Assembly: GCF_020217185.1 (NCBI RefSeq)
Contig: NZ_JAIWNX010000029.1
Location: 1 to 10,000, forward strand
From: Asticcacaulis sp.
GTDB lineage: Bacteria > Pseudomonadota > Alphaproteobacteria > Caulobacterales > Caulobacteraceae
Direction: 5' to 3'
Length of the DNA: 10,000 nucleotides
The translations under genes were made by a program, and so were the position numbers. The notes beneath the pieces were generated by a model. It saw nothing but the letters and a program-made list of their open reading frames with translations. It ran no database searches and was not told where the DNA came from. Positions 1 through 7,571 of this stretch are shown piece by piece (the first letter of the stretch is position 1; the number at the start of each line of letters is the position of its first letter).

Positions 1-331
1 TTCGCGAGGCCGTCGAAAGCGACGGGTCCATGGCCGAAACGACCTTGTCGCGCATCTGCACCAGAAGGTCGGAGACCGATTCCCCGGCCGCCAGCGTCAC
101 GTCAGCGACCGATGTGGCGCGGTTGAGCGAGTTTTTCACCGCACTGAGCGAGCTAAGGTCAGCGCGCTGCCCCTGCGCGATCGAATACAGCGCCGCATTG
201 TCCTTGGCGCTGGACACCTCAAGGCCTGTGGAGATCTTGGTTTGCGTCGATTCCAGTTTGCGGGTCGTTGCATTCAGATTCTGCAACGCCGTCATGGCAG
301 TCTTGTTGGTATTGACGCTTACCGTCGGCAT
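1..331 (-). CDS. Flagellin A, N-terminal part (runs off the left edge)
   Basis: Filament subunit of the flagellum; only the first 110 codons lie in the window. The product starts MPTVSVNTNKTAMTALQNLN, a classic flagellin D0 start, and continues with the D1 signature (STGLEVSSAKDNAA, GQRADLSSL, AAGESVSDLL). The ATG at 331-329 is preceded by GGAGAA about nine bases upstream, which fixes the start. It is the most divergent of the three flagellins here: it has NTNKTAM where the others have NTNSGAM or NTNAGAM, and DKVVSAMDPS where they have EKALAASD. Unlike the other two genes, no sigma-54 promoter is visible upstream, so it may be expressed under different control. It belongs to the bacterial flagellin family with certainty; assignment to a particular fljJ/K/L/M/N/O orthologue is not possible from this fragment. 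Confidence 0.95.
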   Translation of the reverse strand, partial: MPTVSVNTNKTAMTALQNLNATTRKLESTQTKISTGLEVSSAKDNAALYSIAQGQRADLSSLSAVKNSLNRATSVADVTLAAGESVSDLLVQMRDKVVSAMDPSLSTASR

Positions 332-468: not shown

Positions 469-798
469 TCAGATATCGGTCCTGACGATGCTTCCCGCCT
501 TGTAACTTCTCGATTTTTGCATTTCCAGCAGCTCCTTTTGCGGGAACTGGCGGACCACCTCGCCTGTATAGCGATCAATCGCGCGATAGATGAACTCACC
601 GCTGTCCGGGTCCTTATCTATCGTCAGTTTGAGCATATAGGCCGGTTGGGACTGCGCCCGGTCATGATTCGACAAACCGTTTTCCGTCTGGCTGCCCGAG
701 GTCGCCGGAGCGACTTCCTGAACGGGCTTGACCGGCTCCACGGGCTTAACCTGAGTGGGGTCGGTGACGGCGGGCGGGGTTACTGCATTCGTAATCAT
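469..798 (-). CDS. flaG: FlaG-family flagellar protein
   Basis: Small soluble protein of 109 residues. The C-terminal half (about residues 52-100) carries the FlaG-family pattern: a hydrophobic strand, LTIDKDPDSGEFIYRAID, then RYTGEVVRQFPQKELLEMQK, matching the family's IDKDTGEVVRQIPPEE-type signature. The N-terminal ~45 residues are proline-rich and low in complexity (KPVEPVKPVQE), probably disordered. In bacteria that have been studied, FlaG affects filament length or assembly, but the molecular role is poorly defined. This bacterial FlaG is unrelated to the archaeal one and should not be confused with the Caulobacter locus historically called flaG. It sits alone between two flagellin genes. 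The ATG at 798 abuts AGGAG with no spacer, an unusually tight Shine-Dalgarno placement; no better start was found downstream. A terminator upstream (879-910) implies its own promoter, which I could not identify. Confidence 0.85.
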   Translation of the reverse strand: MITNAVTPPAVTDPTQVKPVEPVKPVQEVAPATSGSQTENGLSNHDRAQSQPAYMLKLTIDKDPDSGEFIYRAIDRYTGEVVRQFPQKELLEMQKSRSYKAGSIVRTDI

Positions 799-918: not shown

Positions 919-1737
919 TTAACGGAACAGGCTCAGAACCGTCGAAGTCGATTGGTTCGCGATCGACAGGGCCTGAACGCCAAGCTGTTGCTTGGTTTGC
1001 AGGGCCTGCAGCTTTGCGCTTTCCTTCGCCAGGTCGGCATCCACAAGGTTGCCGATCCCGTTTTCGATCGAGTCAGACAGCTTGCTGATGAAGTTGGCGT
1101 GGTTAGCCAGCGACTTCGAAGACGTACCGAGCTTCGCCAGCTTGGCCGAAACGTCGTCGATCTTGGTCGCGAGGGTCGCAACCGCCGCCGAAGCCGTAGC
1201 CTTGGTGCCGATCGTCGTCGCGTTGATACCCAGACCCGTCAGAGACAGGTTTTGAGCCGCAACGGTCAGCGTACCACCGGAGTCGTTGGCCAGAGCCGAG
1301 AGGGCCGAGCCACCTTGCTTGATGATGTTGATGCCGTTGAACGTCGCGTTGTTGACGGTCTTGCCGATCTGGTCGCGGATCGCCTTGAAGTCTTCGTTCA
1401 GAGCGGTGCGGCTGGCCGTGCTCAAGCTGGAGTCAGACGCTGCGAGGGCCTTTTCCTTCAGCTGCGAGAGCATGTCGGAAACGGATTCGCCGGCCGAGAT
1501 GGCCACATCGACGACAGATTGGTTACGGGAGAGCGATTCCTGAACCGCGTTGAGCGAGGAAACCTGAGCGCGCTGCCCTTGGGCGATGGCGAAGACGGCG
1601 CCGTTGTCCTTGGCGCTGGCGACCTTCTGGCCCGTATTGATACGGGTTTGGGTCGTTTGCAGGTCGGCGTTGGTCTTGTTCAGGTTTTGCAGAGCAATCA
1701 TAGCTCCGCTGTTGGTATTCACGCTATTGAGCGCCAT
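919..1737 (-). CDS. Flagellin B
   Basis: Complete filament subunit of 272 residues, the usual size for Caulobacteraceae flagellins. The N-terminal D0/D1 region (about residues 1-140) begins MALNSVNTNSGAMIALQNLN and contains TRINTGQKVASAKDNGA. The C-terminal D1/D0 region (about 190-272) contains DADLAKESAKLQALQTKQ and ends STVLSLFR. The short Ser/Thr/Ala-rich middle (about 145-190) is the surface-exposed variable part and the expected site of O-glycosylation. GAAGGA about eight bases before the ATG supports this start. It is transcribed alone: a sigma-54 promoter lies at 1809-1824, a three-copy enhancer-like array upstream, and a strong terminator follows. It is closest to flagellin C. By synteny it corresponds to one of fljJ/fljK/fljL, but I cannot say which. 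Confidence 0.97.
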   Translation of the reverse strand: MALNSVNTNSGAMIALQNLNKTNADLQTTQTRINTGQKVASAKDNGAVFAIAQGQRAQVSSLNAVQESLSRNQSVVDVAISAGESVSDMLSQLKEKALAASDSSLSTASRTALNEDFKAIRDQIGKTVNNATFNGINIIKQGGSALSALANDSGGTLTVAAQNLSLTGLGINATTIGTKATASAAVATLATKIDDVSAKLAKLGTSSKSLANHANFISKLSDSIENGIGNLVDADLAKESAKLQALQTKQQLGVQALSIANQSTSTVLSLFR

Positions 1738-2023: not shown

Positions 2024-2854
2024 TTACTGGAACAGCCGGGTAACGACACCCGGAGCCTGATTGGCGATAGACAAGGCCTGCACACCCAGCTGCTGCTTGG
2101 TTTGCAGGGCCTGAAGCTTCGCACTTTCCTTGGCCAGATCGGCGTCCACAAGGTTGCCGATCCCCGATTCCATCGAGTCGACCAACTTCGAAACAAACTG
2201 TGCGTGCGCATCCAGCGACTTCGATGACGTCCCCAGACGGCCAAGCGCCGCAGACACATTGGCGATCGAGACATCCACGGCATCGGCAATGGTCTTTGCC
2301 TGCGCCGCCGAAGTAAAGGCCGAACCCGCCGAAAGCGTGATCGTGCTGCCCGTCAGGCTGAGATCCTGCGCCGCTACGGTCAGCTTTGACGAGCCGTCCG
2401 CATTAGCCAGAGGAGCAATCGCTGAAGCGCCATTTTTGATCAGATTGACCCCGTTGAACGTCGCATTGTTCACCGTTTTCGAAATCTGATCGCGCAGCGC
2501 CTTGAAATCTTCGTTCAACGCCTGACGACTGACCGTGGTCAGGGACGTATCCGAAGCCGCGAGTGCCTTCTCCTTCATCTGGGTCAACATATCCGCAACG
2601 CTTTCGCCGGCGGAGATCGCTACATCGACAGCCGATTTAGCCCGATCAAGCGAGTCCGTCACCGCACCAAGGGAAGATACATCCGAGCGCTGGCGGGTGG
2701 CGATGGCGTAAACCGCCCCGTTATCCTTGGCGCTCGCAACCCTCAACCCTGTATTGATGCGGGTTTGCGTGGTTTGCAGTTCGTTGTTGGTTTTGTTCAG
2801 GTTTTGCAGGGCGATCATCGCACCCGCATTGGTATTGATCGACATATTCGGCAT
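2024..2854 (-). CDS. Flagellin C
   Basis: Complete filament subunit of 276 residues starting MPNMSINTNAGAMIALQNLN. An upstream in-frame ATG at 2896 would add 14 residues, but AAGGA lies eight bases before the ATG at 2854, and flagellins conserve this exact N-terminus, so 2854 is chosen. The D0/D1 N-terminal region covers roughly residues 1-140 and the C-terminal D1/D0 region about 190-276, with DADLAKESAKLQALQTKQ identical to flagellin B. The middle is Ser/Thr/Ala-rich and more divergent. The C-terminus reads GVVTRLFQ rather than the SLFR of flagellin B. It has its own sigma-54 promoter (2933-2948) and terminator. By position next to flaF it corresponds to fljL of C. crescentus as I recall that locus, but paralogue identity is uncertain. 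Confidence 0.97.
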   Translation of the reverse strand: MPNMSINTNAGAMIALQNLNKTNNELQTTQTRINTGLRVASAKDNGAVYAIATRQRSDVSSLGAVTDSLDRAKSAVDVAISAGESVADMLTQMKEKALAASDTSLTTVSRQALNEDFKALRDQISKTVNNATFNGVNLIKNGASAIAPLANADGSSKLTVAAQDLSLTGSTITLSAGSAFTSAAQAKTIADAVDVSIANVSAALGRLGTSSKSLDAHAQFVSKLVDSMESGIGNLVDADLAKESAKLQALQTKQQLGVQALSIANQAPGVVTRLFQ

Positions 2855-2889
2855 CGATAACGTCCTTTCCATTCTGGTCGGGGATTTGA

Positions 2890-2919
2890 CCGGCAATTTT
2901 GCCGCAAAGCCATTTTGGC
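2890..2919 (-). other. Two leader stem-loops of flagellin C mRNA
   Basis: Just after the predicted start (about 2922, CAGGC) the leader reads GCCA-AAA-TGGC (2909-2919), the counterpart of the flagellin B leader hairpin. It is followed by GGCAAAATTGCCGG (2890-2903), which is both a hairpin and a one-base-shorter version of the ftr-like 15-mer found at 1899-1952. The second element could therefore act as DNA (a downstream ftr site, as described for flbG/flaN in Caulobacter) or as RNA. Confidence 0.4.
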
Positions 2920-3080: not shown

Positions 3081-3491
3081 TTAACCGAGTGACGCCCGCA
3101 CCGTGCCAACAAAAGCCGGATCGGCAGCCGGCGCCGTGTCCTGACGGGGCATCAAGCCCTGCATGATCAGGCGATTGACCTCGATCAGCGGCGCGATCTC
3201 TTCCTGACCGCGCATGACGGCGGAGGTATGACGGTTGACCCAGATCGACAGGGACACGATCTGCGCGCGCAGGGTTTCAGGCAGACCATTGCCCGGCAGG
3301 GCGCAATCCGTCCCCAGAACCGACCACAGGCGGCGGTTCCAGTCGAGCGCATCCATGCGACGGGAAACCTCGCTCCGGTCGAGCTCGGCCGCCTCCATCA
3401 GCGCGCGGGTAACCTGACCGAACAGACGATACTCCGTCTGGCGCGGATCTTCACTCCGCTGAGCCGTCTTCTGATAGGCCTGTAGAGACAT
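3081..3491 (-). CDS. flaF: FlaF, flagellin synthesis regulator/chaperone
   Basis: FlaF is a small cytoplasmic alphaproteobacterial protein needed for flagellin synthesis or secretion; in Caulobacter it opposes FlbT, which represses flagellin translation. The 136-residue product matches the family along its length: [11 protein letters not shown] at the start, [15 protein letters not shown], then [32 protein letters not shown] and [14 protein letters not shown]. The ATG at 3491 is preferred over an in-frame TTG two codons upstream, because the family starts with MSxxAY. No clear Shine-Dalgarno precedes it. It begins inside the 3' end of flbT (41-base overlap, different frame), so translation is probably coupled to flbT. 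It is co-transcribed with flbT and ends before a terminator. Confidence 0.93.
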
Positions 3492-3876
3492 GTCCAAGTC
3501 TTTCGTCTTCGTACTCGATAAGCTTACGGCAGCCCATCAGGGCCTTGTAATATTCGCGCCCCATGATGGCTTTGGAAATCACCACACACTCCGCCAGAAT
3601 GGCCGGATTGGCGATGACGCTCATGAATTCGGTCATGCGCGTCAGGAACTCGTCGTAATATTTTTCCGCCCCCGCCTCATCGAGGTACATCATCATCACC
3701 GGGAAGTAGATGTGACGCGACGGAGAGGTGACCTCGCTGGCCTGCATGATGTCTTTTTCACGCAGCACCGAGGCCTTGTTCTGGAGCACAAGCGAACACC
3801 GGCGGTCACCGTTCTGCACGACGGCACCGTTGAGAACAAATTTTTCACCCGGCTTGAGCGACAGTTTGAGCGGCAT
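3451..3876 (-). CDS. flbT: FlbT, post-transcriptional repressor of flagellin
   Basis: FlbT couples flagellin expression to assembly: in Caulobacter crescentus it is required for destabilising flagellin mRNA through the 5' leader when the hook-basal body is incomplete. The 141-residue product shows the family's hallmarks: [20 protein letters not shown], the basic stretch [21 protein letters not shown] and [18 protein letters not shown] lies about seven bases before the ATG at 3874-3876. It is the first gene of a flbT-flaF unit divergent from the flmG-like gene across a 209-base region. A basic, RNA-contacting surface would be expected, but no known RNA-binding motif is recognisable. Confidence 0.95.
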
Positions 3877-4085: not shown

Positions 4086-7000
4086 ATGCCCAAAAAAACG
4101 TGGCCAATCAAACATCAGGCTGTTGAAACCGCGGCCGCAGAGGCCCTTGAGATACGCCCGGCAAAGGTTCTCGCCACGCCCGATACGGTCAGCTCTATCG
4201 CGATGAACGCCGCCGCCACGCCTCCGGGTAAGGACGTTCTGGCCGATCTGGCCTCAACGATTCTGGGGGATTCCGGGTCTTCGGCCGCCCTCGAAGCCCT
4301 GATGGAGGCCACGCGCTACATCAGCGAGGTGCGTCTGCTCACGCTTTTGAAGGACTCGCTGCTGCTTGTCCAGAAATCCGACTATGAGGGAGCGACGCAA
4401 AAGGCGCTGGAAGCGCTGCGCGTCAATGAAAAGTGCGGCACGGCCTGGCATATTCTGGCCGTATGCCGCGAAAAGGCCGGCGACATCAAAAGCGCCTTCA
4501 CCTGTTTCGAAGCCGCCCTGCAACTCGAAGAAGACAATACCGGCATCGCCAATGATCTGGGCCGCCTGGCCTATCAACTGGACATGCACACGCAGGCCGA
4601 AAAACTGTTCCGTTATGTGCTCGACAAAAACCCGGACGATTTTGAGGTCGCCAACAACCTCGCCTCGTGCCTGCGTGAAGTGAGCCGCTTTGAAGAGGCG
4701 ATTGCGCTCCTGACGCCATTTCTGGAAAAGGACCCGTCCAACGGCACGCTGTGGAACACGCTGGGCACGGTGGTCAATGCCAAGGGTGACCTGCCGACCG
4801 CCCTCCTCTTCTTCGACGAAGCCGTCAAGTTCGTCCCGGATGACCCCAAGCCCTGGCACAATCGCGGCCTGATCCTCGGCGCTCTGGGCGAGATTGACGC
4901 GGCGATCCACAGCCTTGAGGCCGGCATCAAGCGCATGGTCTCGCCCGCCCAGATCGAGGCGGCGGAACTGGCCATGGCCTTCTGCTATTTCTGCAAGGGC
5001 GATCTGATGCCCGGCTATCGTTACTATGCGGCGCGCAAAGGCCTGCATAGCCTTGAAGGCATGAAGTATATTACCGACGTCCCGGCGCTGGATCTGTCGC
5101 AGTCCCTGACGGGCAAGTCGGTGTTCGTCACCACCGAGCAGGGGCTGGGCGACGAGATCCTGTTTGGCACGGTGCTGCCCGACCTTCTGGCTGAGCTGGG
5201 GCCGGGCGGACACCTGACTCTGGCCGTCGAAAGACGCCTTGTCCCCCTCTATGCGCGCAGCTTCCCGCAGGCGACGGTGATCGCCCACGGCACGGGCAAG
5301 ATCAATGGCATTACAGTACGTCACTTCCCCGGAATGGACACCAGCCGCGCCTATGATGGCTTTGTCATGCTGGGTGACCTGCTGCCGCGCTACCGCCCCA
5401 ACGCGCAGGCCTTTCCGCGGCAAAACAGCTTCCTCACCCCCGATCCTGCGCGCGTCGCCCACTGGAAGGCCGAGCTGGACAAGCTGGGGCCTGAGCCCAA
5501 GATCGGCCTGTTGTGGAAAAGCCTTGTCCAGCATTCGCGCCGCGACCGCTACTATTCCCCCTTCGAAAGCTGGGCCCCCATCCTGCGCACGCCGGGGGCC
5601 GTGTTCGTCAATCTTCAGTACGGCGATGTCAGCGAAGAACTGCGTCAGGCCGAACGCGAAGGCCTGAGCATCTGGAACCCGCCGGGCATCGACCTGAAAC
5701 AGGATCTGGACGATCTGGCCGCCCTGTGCGCCGCCATGGACCTGATCATGGGGCCTTCAAACGCCACCAGCAATATCGCGGCCAGCGTCGGCACCCCTAT
5801 CTGGATTCTCTCCCCGTCCAATAGCTGGCCCATGATGGGCACCGACTATTACCCGTGGTACGGTAGCGCCAGAATGTTCCTGACCCCCACTCCCGGCGAG
5901 TGGACGCCTGCGCTTGAGGAGATGCGTCAGGCCCTGATCCGTGAGGTCGCTGCCCCGGTGCAGGCCCTGTCCAGCGACGATATACGCCGTCAGTTTCAGG
6001 GCGTTGAGCGCGCCCTTCTGATGCGCGACTGGGCCGAGGCCGAAACGCAGGCGCGCGCCCTTTTACGCCACGTGCCCGACCATATCGGTGCCTGGCAAGC
6101 GCTGGCCACCGCGCTTGACCGGCAGGACCGCATTCCGCAGGCCCTCGACGCCTATCAAACGGCTCTGAAGCATCAGCCGGATTCGCTCGATATCGCCGCT
6201 GATCTGGCGCAACTGGCCTTCCGCATCGGCCTTTATGACATGGCCGAACGCTTTTACGGCCTGATCGTTCAGCGTGATCCCGGTCACCTGATGGCCGTCA
6301 ACTATTATGCCGCGGCGCTGCGCGAGCAGTCGAAGTTCGATCAGGCCATCACGCTTCTTCAGGCCTATCTGAGCGACTATCCGAAGCAAAGCGCCCTGTG
6401 GGATACGCTGGGCACCATCCTGCTGGCGCAGGGCGATGCCGACACGGCGCTGATCTTCTTCAACGAAGCCATCTCGCTGGACAACAGCCTGCCGGCGCGC
6501 TTCAACCGCGCCTGCCTGTGGATGGAAAAAGGTCTGCTGGCCGAGGCCCTGCCGGAGCTGGAACTGTGTCTGGATCGCTTCTCCGAGCCCGGTAATCTGC
6601 GCTCGGTCGAACTGAGCATGGCCTATGCCCATTTAGGGCTCGGCAATCTCAAGGCCGGGTGGCAGGCCTATGCAGCGCGCCATATGACCGGCACGCCGAA
6701 GCAGGTACATTTCGACCTGCCCGCCGGCCCGCTCAAACCCGAAGAGATTTCCGGCAAGCGTCTGTTATTGCTGGCCGAACAGGGGCTGGGCGACGAGGTC
6801 ATGTTCGGGACTCTGGTGCCGGATATTATCGAAAAGCTGGGCAACGGGGTTTTGACCTTAGCCGTTGAAAAGCGCCTCGTGCCGCTGTTTGCGCGGGCCT
6901 TCCCCAAGGCCCGCGTTCTGCCGCATCACACCGAAAGCCGTGACGGCGTCATTACCCGCAGCGTGCCGGGCCTGTCGGGCGACAGCGTGGACGGCTGGGC

Positions 7001-7571
7001 GCTGATGGGGGATTTCCTGCCGCTGTTGCGCGGCGATCTGGAGGCCTTTGCCAATAAAGCGCCGGTGTTCGTGCCTGACCCGGCGCGCGTCGCCTTCTGG
7101 AAAGGCGAACTGGCCAGACAGGGCAGCGGCCCGAAGGTTGGCCTGCTATGGAAAAGCCTGATCAGCCATTCCCGCCGCGACCGCTTCTACCCGCCTTTTG
7201 AGTCCCTCGCACCGCTGCTGGGGCGCAAGGACCTCGTCTTCGTCAACCTGCAATATGGCGAGACGGTCAGCGAACAGATCGCCGCCAAGGCGCAAGGCGC
7301 ACGCTTTTTCACCCCGCCCATCGACCTGCTGAACGATCTGGGTGAACTGAGTGCCCTGTGCGCGGCGCTGGACGTGGTCATCGGCCCCGCCAATGCCAGC
7401 ACGCAGATCGCCGCGGCGACCGGCGTGCCGACCTGGTTCGTCATGACGCCCGGCTCGTGGACCCAGTTGGGGAGCGACCATTGCCCGTGGTACGCCAATG
7501 CCCGCGTCTTCGTCACCGAAGAGGAGCAATGGGCGTCGCTCATGCAACGGGTGTCGGAGGAGATCCAATAA
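4086..7571 (+). CDS. flmG: FlmG-like flagellin glycosyltransferase with two tandem TPR-GT units
   Basis: A soluble 1161-residue protein expected to transfer a nonulosonic acid (pseudaminic acid in C. crescentus) to flagellin Ser/Thr residues before export. It has the FlmG architecture twice. Unit 1 has TPR repeats at about residues 83-290 (AWHILAVCREKAGDIKSAF, DLGRLAYQLDMHTQAEKLF, LGTVVNAKGDLPTALLFFDE) and a GT-B-type domain at about 335-605 with EQGLGDE (351), GLLWKSLVQHSRRDR (474) and GPSNATSNIAASVG (556). Unit 2 repeats this: TPRs at about 628-840, then EQGLGDE (898), GLLWKSLISHSRRDR (1019) and GPANASTQIAAATG (1100). TPRs in FlmG recognise flagellin. The ATG at 4086 is chosen because GGAGA lies six bases upstream; an in-frame ATG at 4029 lacks a ribosome site. 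It is divergent from flbT, as expected for flmG. FlmG identity rests on architecture and synteny, not a database search. Confidence 0.85.
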   Translation: MPKKTWPIKHQAVETAAAEALEIRPAKVLATPDTVSSIAMNAAATPPGKDVLADLASTILGDSGSSAALEALMEATRYISEVRLLTLLKDSLLLVQKSDYEGATQKALEALRVNEKCGTAWHILAVCREKAGDIKSAFTCFEAALQLEEDNTGIANDLGRLAYQLDMHTQAEKLFRYVLDKNPDDFEVANNLASCLREVSRFEEAIALLTPFLEKDPSNGTLWNTLGTVVNAKGDLPTALLFFDEAVKFVPDDPKPWHNRGLILGALGEIDAAIHSLEAGIKRMVSPAQIEAAELAMAFCYFCKGDLMPGYRYYAARKGLHSLEGMKYITDVPALDLSQSLTGKSVFVTTEQGLGDEILFGTVLPDLLAELGPGGHLTLAVERRLVPLYARSFPQATVIAHGTGKINGITVRHFPGMDTSRAYDGFVMLGDLLPRYRPNAQAFPRQNSFLTPDPARVAHWKAELDKLGPEPKIGLLWKSLVQHSRRDRYYSPFESWAPILRTPGAVFVNLQYGDVSEELRQAEREGLSIWNPPGIDLKQDLDDLAALCAAMDLIMGPSNATSNIAASVGTPIWILSPSNSWPMMGTDYYPWYGSARMFLTPTPGEWTPALEEMRQALIREVAAPVQALSSDDIRRQFQGVERALLMRDWAEAETQARALLRHVPDHIGAWQALATALDRQDRIPQALDAYQTALKHQPDSLDIAADLAQLAFRIGLYDMAERFYGLIVQRDPGHLMAVNYYAAALREQSKFDQAITLLQAYLSDYPKQSALWDTLGTILLAQGDADTALIFFNEAISLDNSLPARFNRACLWMEKGLLAEALPELELCLDRFSEPGNLRSVELSMAYAHLGLGNLKAGWQAYAARHMTGTPKQVHFDLPAGPLKPEEISGKRLLLLAEQGLGDEVMFGTLVPDIIEKLGNGVLTLAVEKRLVPLFARAFPKARVLPHHTESRDGVITRSVPGLSGDSVDGWALMGDFLPLLRGDLEAFANKAPVFVPDPARVAFWKGELARQGSGPKVGLLWKSLISHSRRDRFYPPFESLAPLLGRKDLVFVNLQYGETVSEQIAAKAQGARFFTPPIDLLNDLGELSALCAALDVVIGPANASTQIAAATGVPTWFVMTPGSWTQLGSDHCPWYANARVFVTEEEQWASLMQRVSEEIQ
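4330..7568 (+). repeat. Internal tandem duplication of about 545 codons within flmG
   Basis: Unit 1 spans about 4330-5960 and unit 2 about 5965-7568. Matching landmarks fall 544-547 residues apart: EQGLGDE (5136 and 6777), GLLWKSL (5505 and 7140), GPSNA/GPANA (5751 and 7383). The units are colinear through both TPR and GT parts, and roughly half of the GT residues are identical by eye, so the duplication is old rather than an assembly artefact. The 80-residue N-terminal leader of unit 1 has no counterpart in unit 2. Confidence 0.92.

What the first reader, a model, noticed from the sequence alone, without database searches (positions are those of the whole stretch)
4086..7571. Two-headed FlmG: a flagellin glycosyltransferase with a full internal TPR-GT duplication
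The protein contains the complete FlmG architecture twice in one chain, with both GT domains keeping the same motifs (EQGLGDE, WKSL..HSRRDR, GP.NA....AA..G) about 545 residues apart, while diverging to roughly half identity. Selection has kept both halves, so they may have different jobs: different flagellin paralogues, different sugars, or sequential addition at two sites. Only single-unit FlmG of about 600 residues is known to me from C. crescentus. With at least three flagellins adjacent, one of them clearly divergent, two recognition modules in one polypeptide is an attractive idea.
Basis: partly seen in the sequence, partly recalled or inferred. Interest (0 to 1): 0.8.

Follow-up and report, generated by a model that had tools for sequence, protein, structure and literature searches.

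The report
Fused pair of flagellin sugar-transferases
In one branch of the water bacterium genus Asticcacaulis, two neighbouring genes that most likely attach sugars to flagellum proteins have merged into one double-headed enzyme; relatives still carry the two genes separately, which makes the division of labour between the two heads testable.

Summary
In detail: the + strand frame 4086-7571 encodes 1161 aa with two complete TPR + glycosyltransferase (GT) units, 40% identical over 525 aa, beside flagellin, flaG, flaF and flbT genes. It is not a recent internal duplication but a gene fusion. Of 25 genus genomes, 8 carry the fused gene, 16 two adjacent same-strand genes (the second broken in one), 1 a single gene. 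In the combined tree unit 2 groups with the separate second genes (100*) and a unit 1 + unit 2 clade is rejected (AU p=0.00018); GT alone does not decide. The fused genomes form one clade in a neighbour-gene tree (99*). Both units are under purifying selection. Unit 2 keeps 20 of 28 family-conserved TPR positions (unit 1: 27) and 59 of 64 GT positions, with a clade-wide N->Q in the GPxNA loop. The genome has one nonulosonate synthase, PseI type, which weakens the two-sugar idea. What unit 2 does is unproven. TPR-GT chains of two to four units exist elsewhere, for example Azospirillum.

The parts
4086..7571 (+). fused two-unit FlmG-type protein, 1161 aa (longest frame from 4029, 1180 aa)
4086..4280 (+). 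N-terminal tail, low confidence in the model
   Evidence: residues 1-69 pLDDT < 50
4281..5039 (+). unit 1 TPR superhelix (keeps 27 of 28 family-conserved TPR positions)
5061..5945 (+). unit 1 GT-B glycosyltransferase domain (62 of 64 conserved positions kept)
5136..5156 (+). EQGLGDE motif of unit 1
5751..5777 (+). GPSNATSNI loop of unit 1 (N582, as in 99% of the other units compared)
5946..5972 (+). short linker / fusion junction between the units
5973..6683 (+). unit 2 TPR superhelix (derived; keeps 20 of 28 family-conserved TPR positions)
6705..7568 (+). unit 2 GT-B glycosyltransferase domain (59 of 64 conserved positions kept; GT9-like fold)
6777..6797 (+). EQGLGDE motif of unit 2
7383..7409 (+). 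GPANASTQI loop of unit 2 (Q1126 in place of the near-invariant N, in 8 of 8 fused unit 2s)
3451..3876 (-). flbT, divergent from flmG
   Evidence: PF07378 E=3e-45; NF001995 over cut-off
3081..3497 (-). flaF
   Evidence: PF07309 E=1.9e-35; NF009435 over cut-off
2024..2896 (-). flagellin (start at 2854 assumed)
919..1737 (-). flagellin
469..798 (-). flaG
   Evidence: PF03646 over cut-off
2..331 (-). divergent flagellin, cut by the contig end

Best explanation
This is a bifunctional FlmG-type flagellin O-glycosyltransferase made by fusing two tandem paralogous genes, flmG1 and flmG2 (my labels). Shown here: both units are complete TPR + GT-B modules, conserved under purifying selection; the duplication predates the fusion; the fused genomes form one clade. 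Inferred: each TPR domain captures flagellin in the cytoplasm before export and the GT domain behind it transfers pseudaminic acid (from CMP-Pse, recalled) to Ser/Thr of the flagellin. Unit 1 does the ancestral FlmG job; unit 2, whose TPR domain was remodelled after the duplication, handles different flagellins or different sites; fusion fixes a 1:1 ratio and lets one chain modify a bound flagellin twice.
For: Two units, 40% identical; TPR-GT-TPR-GT model; GT9-like GT-B fold of unit 2. Fused 8, split tandem 16, single 1 of 25 genus genomes. Unit 2 + separate second genes one clade (100*), unit 1 + unit 2 clade rejected p=0.00018. Fused genomes one clade, 99*. dN/dS 0.013-0.341 over four domains in 7 pairs. 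GT positions kept 62/64 and 59/64, TPR 27/28 and 20/28. Locus order flagellins-flaG-flaF-flbT / flmG. PseI and PseC over cut-off in the own genome. In C. crescentus the FlmG TPR part binds flagellins, the GT part alone does not restore modification, and Pse is required (PMC7591256, section 7 and part 1 of 2 of the Discussion).
Against: No result here shows glycosylation in this organism, flagellin binding by either TPR domain, or activity of unit 2. Unit 2 GT has fused-clade-specific changes (N582->Q in 8 of 8, one residue missing in 8 of 8, others in part) and fewer constant columns than unit 1 GT (133/277 vs 164/285, p=0.028 uncorrected). The GT tree alone does not reject unit 1 + unit 2 as a clade (p=0.42) and the TPR tree alone is borderline (p=0.059). 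One relative (G004) does without a second unit. C. crescentus glycosylates all six flagellins with a single FlmG (PMC7591256), so a second unit is not needed merely for several flagellins.
Confidence: 0.55

Rival explanations
1. Crossed division of labour: after fusion, unit 2 mainly contributes its TPR domain for holding flagellin and unit 1 mainly the catalytic domain; unit 2 GT is weakly active or structural.
For: In the 8 fused proteins unit 2 TPR is the best conserved domain (152 of 250 columns constant) and unit 2 GT less so (133 of 277); unit 1 is the reverse (TPR 120 of 251, GT 164 of 285). In separate genes GT is better conserved than TPR (8 of 16 first genes: 101/288 vs 75/247; 8 of 15 second genes: 84/283 vs 45/219). 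N->Q in the GPxNA loop in 8 of 8 fused unit 2s, N in 99% of the 75 other units compared.
Against: Unit 2 GT keeps 59 of 64 conserved positions including all of EQGLGDE and dN/dS of 0.12-0.28, more constraint than a dead domain would show. The tests are uncorrected and ignore shared ancestry; part of the unit 1 TPR drop comes from one lineage split (L065/L066).
Confidence: 0.25
2. The two units use different donors (for example Pse and another sugar) and build a two-sugar glycan or two glycan types.
For: The changes in the unit 2 GPxNA loop could touch donor binding (inference from recalled GT9 enzymes; not testable here).
Against: 7 of 8 fused genomes hold one NeuB-family synthase, PseI type in 3 of 3 typed. 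A donor that is not a nonulosonate is not excluded; G023 has two further NeuB-family genes.
Confidence: 0.1
3. Simple dosage or redundancy: two equivalent units.
For: Most conserved GT positions are kept in both.
Against: The TPR domains have diverged in a paralogue-specific way in 23 of 23 second units (16-20 of 28 positions kept, versus 24-28 in 24 first units).
Confidence: 0.08
4. One-step internal duplication within a single flmG in this lineage.
For: The GT tree alone does not reject it (p=0.42) and the TPR tree is borderline (p=0.059).
Against: The combined tree rejects unit 1 + unit 2 as a clade, p=0.00018; relatives carry the two genes side by side at the same place.
Confidence: 0.02

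Closest known systems
FlmG of Caulobacter crescentus (CCNA_01524, 596 aa; PMC7591256)
   Same: TPR N-terminal + GT-B C-terminal domain, Pse pathway in the host; the neighbourhood with flagellin, flaF and flbT genes is seen here in Caulobacter sp. BP25
   Different: single unit there; here two paralogous units in one chain, the second with a derived TPR domain
Separate tandem flmG1-flmG2 pairs of other genomes of the genus (L069-L084)
   Same: orthologous units in the same order at the same locus
   Different: two genes, in 5 of 16 genomes overlapping by 4 bp, instead of one
Unnamed 2- and 3-unit TPR-GT proteins, many in Azospirillum (among P0008-P0120)
   Same: repeated TPR-GT modules; one 3-unit case (L165) directly follows a flagellin and flbT
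   Different: about 23-32% identical to the window protein; in the six triple chains named Azospirillum, units 1 and 2 are 65-78% identical in the GT domain, so their history differs
GT9 heptosyltransferases (WaaC, WaaF, TibC)
   Different: 12-15% identity, no Pfam GT9 match over cut-off, different presumed donor

Membership tests
FlmG | TPR N-terminal domain followed by GT-B C-terminal domain, about 600 aa | tested here: met
   met twice:
FlmG | homologous to single-unit FlmG of Caulobacteraceae at flagellin loci | tested here: met
   Caulobacter sp. BP25 locus 46% identical. The C. crescentus protein itself was not fetched or compared
FlmG | linked to flagellin, flaF, flbT genes | tested here: met
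FlmG | host makes pseudaminic acid | tested here: inconclusive
   PseI and PseC over NCBIfam cut-offs; the other steps of the pathway were not searched
FlmG | TPR domain binds flagellins; protein needed and sufficient for flagellin modification | not testable with these tools
   needs two-hybrid, mutant and reconstitution work
GT9 heptosyltransferase | GT-B fold of the GT9 type | tested here: met
   [not shown]
GT9 heptosyltransferase | sequence match to PF01075 over cut-off | tested here: not met
   unit 1: E=0.02, 14.7 bits (cut-off 22); unit 2: none up to E=1
OGT / GT41 | TPR plus GT41 catalytic domain | tested here: inconclusive
   the best stretches of PDB sequence matches to OGT lie in the TPR parts; an OGT chain only at rank 50 by fold

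The most novel reading that the evidence does not exclude
Multi-headed flagellin glycosyltransferases are an unrecognised, recurrent class: flmG-type genes at flagellin loci duplicate in tandem, the TPR recognition domain of the second copy diverges, and the copies are sometimes fused into chains of two or three (perhaps four) TPR-GT units. In the fused Asticcacaulis enzyme the heads have further specialised in a crossed way, with unit 2 TPR as main flagellin holder and unit 1 GT as main catalyst. (Lowered from 0.3 on checking: of 7 genomes outside the family read with multi-unit frames, only 1 has a flagellin in the stretch.)
Probability: 0.25. Interest if true: 0.65.

Novelty: new variant of a known kind. 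Interest (0 to 1): 0.48.

Why it matters
How flagellin O-glycosyltransferases choose acceptors and sites is open (PMC7591256 says so of cytoplasmic O-glycosylation). Here nature offers the same two paralogues fused, separate, and with one missing within one genus, with much of the change in the TPR recognition domain. Domain swaps and unit knock-outs between these forms would directly test whether the TPR domain programs the acceptor or the site, and what fusion adds.

Tried and rejected
Internal duplication: rejected by the combined tree, although GT alone and TPR alone could not decide. Decay of unit 2: not supported, dN/dS well below 1. A second nonulosonate pathway: only one NeuB-family gene in 7 of 8 fused genomes; G023 has two extra, one of them typed as N-acetylneuraminate synthase, the other not typed. 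A profile search of solved structures with the GT alignment gave only 7 chance-level matches (E 0.87 and worse), so the GT9 likeness rests on fold alone, and an equivalence of N582 to a GT9 donor-site residue (recalled) could not be tested. The sequence matches in the PDB (60 of 97 shown) are TPR proteins or TPR parts. Plasmid tblastn: 107 records, 40 of them Azospirillum, all under 60% identical; the two looked at gave no flagellin context (H6 unannotated, H5 beside chemotaxis genes). Phage tblastn: 2 weak records. Literature: no title or abstract start listed (20 of 33 listed), 49, 73, 74, 75 describes a double or multi-unit FlmG; this covers open-licence PMC papers only, and I did not read those papers through. 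The 2023 EMBO J paper on FlmG is not held; I know it from a reference list and recall. The genome scan gave only 2 loci. The pTM of the full-length model is 0.52, so the placement of the units relative to each other was not interpreted. The broken second gene of G018 was left out of the unit trees (85 units kept).

Full report

SURROUNDINGS. On the minus strand lie flbT, flaF, two complete flagellins, flaG and a third flagellin cut by the contig end. The two complete flagellins are 72% identical; the third (full length read in G023) is 54-55% identical to them; an unlinked fourth is 49-56% identical. Downstream are genes for a universal stress protein and a YfbR-like HD hydrolase, also found beside flmG in most loci of the genus. 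The genome has one NeuB-family gene, PseI over cut-off (497.5 versus 340.25 bits), next to a PseC gene over cut-off (458.5 versus 423.5). The genus has 3-9 flagellin matches per genome, and I saw no link between that number and the form of flmG.

HISTORY. A search of 40 relatives plus the own genome and of 249 genomes of the family (matches in 201) was followed by reading 60 loci from 57 genomes of the family besides the window's own. Within the genus, 25 genomes: 8 have one fused frame of about 1170-1190 aa, 16 have two adjacent same-strand genes, 1 (G004) has one gene. Of the 16 pairs, by first-start frames, 5 overlap by 4 bp, 6 by 8-44 bp, 1 by 157 bp, 3 are 403-809 bp apart, and in 1 (G018, L069) the second frame is broken. 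In the 33 genomes of other genera that I read (35 loci; picked by me, many because they had two matches), 1 genome (G226, L100) has a tandem second copy in the stretch; L115 has in addition a weak GT relative (71 bits). Names in the databases (P0004, P0005, P0010; L151) point to the genus Asticcacaulis.

Trees of 85 units (38 of them single genes or genes outside the pairs, incl. G004 and the second G014 locus): for the TPR part the 8 unit 2s and 15 second genes form one clade (100*, with a warning that long branches meet there); for the GT part the unit 2s stand at the base of the genus clade, and holding them together with the second genes is not worse (lnL 3.3 higher). With TPR and GT combined (59 rows; 12 of the 38 others kept), unit 2 + second genes are one clade (100*), and unit 1 + unit 2 together are rejected, AU p=0.00018. 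Against this, GT alone (p=0.42) and TPR alone (p=0.059) do not reject unit 1 + unit 2. A tree of FlbT+FlaF+Usp+YfbR (32 of 33 loci; L081 had too little) puts the 8 fused genomes in one clade, 99*. The simplest reading: duplication at the base of the genus, one fusion later, loss in G004.

CONSTRAINT. Columns at least 95% conserved in the 38 other FlmG: 64 in GT, of which window unit 1 keeps 62 and unit 2 59; 28 in TPR, of which unit 1 keeps 27, unit 2 20. Over all units: unit 1s 26-27, first genes 24-28, unit 2s 19-20, second genes 16-20 of 28 TPR positions; GT 61-63, 61-64, 57-60 and 60-64 of 64. dN/dS in 7 fused pairs ranges 0.013-0.341 over the four domains. Inside the fused clade, constraint is crossed: constant columns unit 1 TPR 120/251, unit 1 GT 164/285, unit 2 TPR 152/250, unit 2 GT 133/277 (Fisher: unit 2 TPR vs GT p=0.0038, unit 1 p=0.030, uncorrected), while in separate genes GT is better conserved (8 of 16 first genes: TPR 75/247, GT 101/288; 8 of 15 second genes: TPR 45/219, GT 84/283). 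Unit 2 GT has N->Q at the GPxNA loop in 8 of 8 (N in 99% of 75 others) and a missing G in 8 of 8, with changes in 5-6 of 8 at W515, G523 and T580.

MECHANISM. In C. crescentus FlmG the TPR part binds flagellins, the GT part alone does not restore modification, and pseudaminic acid is required (PMC7591256, section 7 and part 1 of 2 of the Discussion read). By homology each unit should hold flagellin in the cytoplasm and transfer Pse. That unit 2 serves other flagellins or other sites is an inference from its derived TPR domain. One NeuB-family synthase in 7 of 8 fused genomes (PseI type in the 3 typed: own, G005, G011) speaks against two nonulosonates. G004, the one genome without a second unit, has two NeuB-family genes, neither over the PseI cut-off (269.6 and 111.7 versus 340.25): a single case, not interpreted.

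WIDER PICTURE. Of the 120 homologues listed (of 236; 7997 candidates scored), 52 have one, 52 two (7 of them the fused Asticcacaulis type, P0001-P0007) and 16 three near-full-length GT domains; many are named Azospirillum, with GT-GT identities of 50-78% in those. Two genomes (L167, L168) have four-unit frames of about 2240 aa without flagellins in the 20 kb read. Of the 9 genomes read there, 7 have multi-unit frames, and of these only G315 has a flagellin in the stretch; the two others with flagellins (L169, L172) carry single-unit genes, in L172 two in tandem. So multi-unit chains are recurrent, but most of those read are not tied to flagellins by position. This counts against the broad novel reading, whose probability I lowered.

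LITERATURE. (open-licence PMC; titles and starts of abstracts seen) listed no paper on a double-unit FlmG. Of PMC7591256 I saw the outline, section 7, part 1 of 2 of section 9 and passages; of PMC13317340 one reference passage.

VERDICT. Real, conserved, and a new variant of the FlmG kind: a fused pair of older paralogues rather than an internal duplication. The function of unit 2 is open.

Noticed in passing
L165:4477-12806 and 15439-18942 (G315): Flagellin, flbT and a three-unit TPR-GT frame (1990 aa) in a row, and a two-unit frame nearby on the other strand; looks like a separate multi-headed flagellin glycosyltransferase line.
   Followed up: partly
L167:9553-16266; L168:6480-13220: Frames of about 2240 aa with four GT domains of the same family, no flagellin found in the 20 kb read.
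   Followed up: partly
L100:4854-8260 (G226, another genus): Independent tandem pair of flmG-type genes; the second copy has the longest end branch of the TPR tree (1.85).
   Followed up: partly
L069:5782-7163 (G018): The second gene of the tandem pair is broken into two frames, while the near relative G021 has it whole; decay or assembly error.
   Followed up: no
G004 (L085, L145, L147): The only genus member with a single flmG also has two NeuB-family genes, both below the PseI cut-off: possible switch of sugar with loss of the second unit.
   Followed up: partly
L081 and L086 (G014): Two flm loci: one with the tandem pair and no flagellin hit in the 14 kb read, one with a single flmG of long TPR branch at the usual flagellin locus; contamination of 4% is a possible cause.
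   Followed up: no
[not shown]
   Followed up: no
MW980061.1:23972-25021 (Rhizobium phage RHph_X2_30): A phage gene annotated as a glycosyltransferase family protein weakly matches the query (26.7% identity).
   Followed up: no
window 4281-5039, L065 and L066: Unit 1 TPR differs strongly between L065 and L066 (dN 0.28 versus 0.11-0.15 in the other three domains): burst of change or recombination.
   Followed up: no
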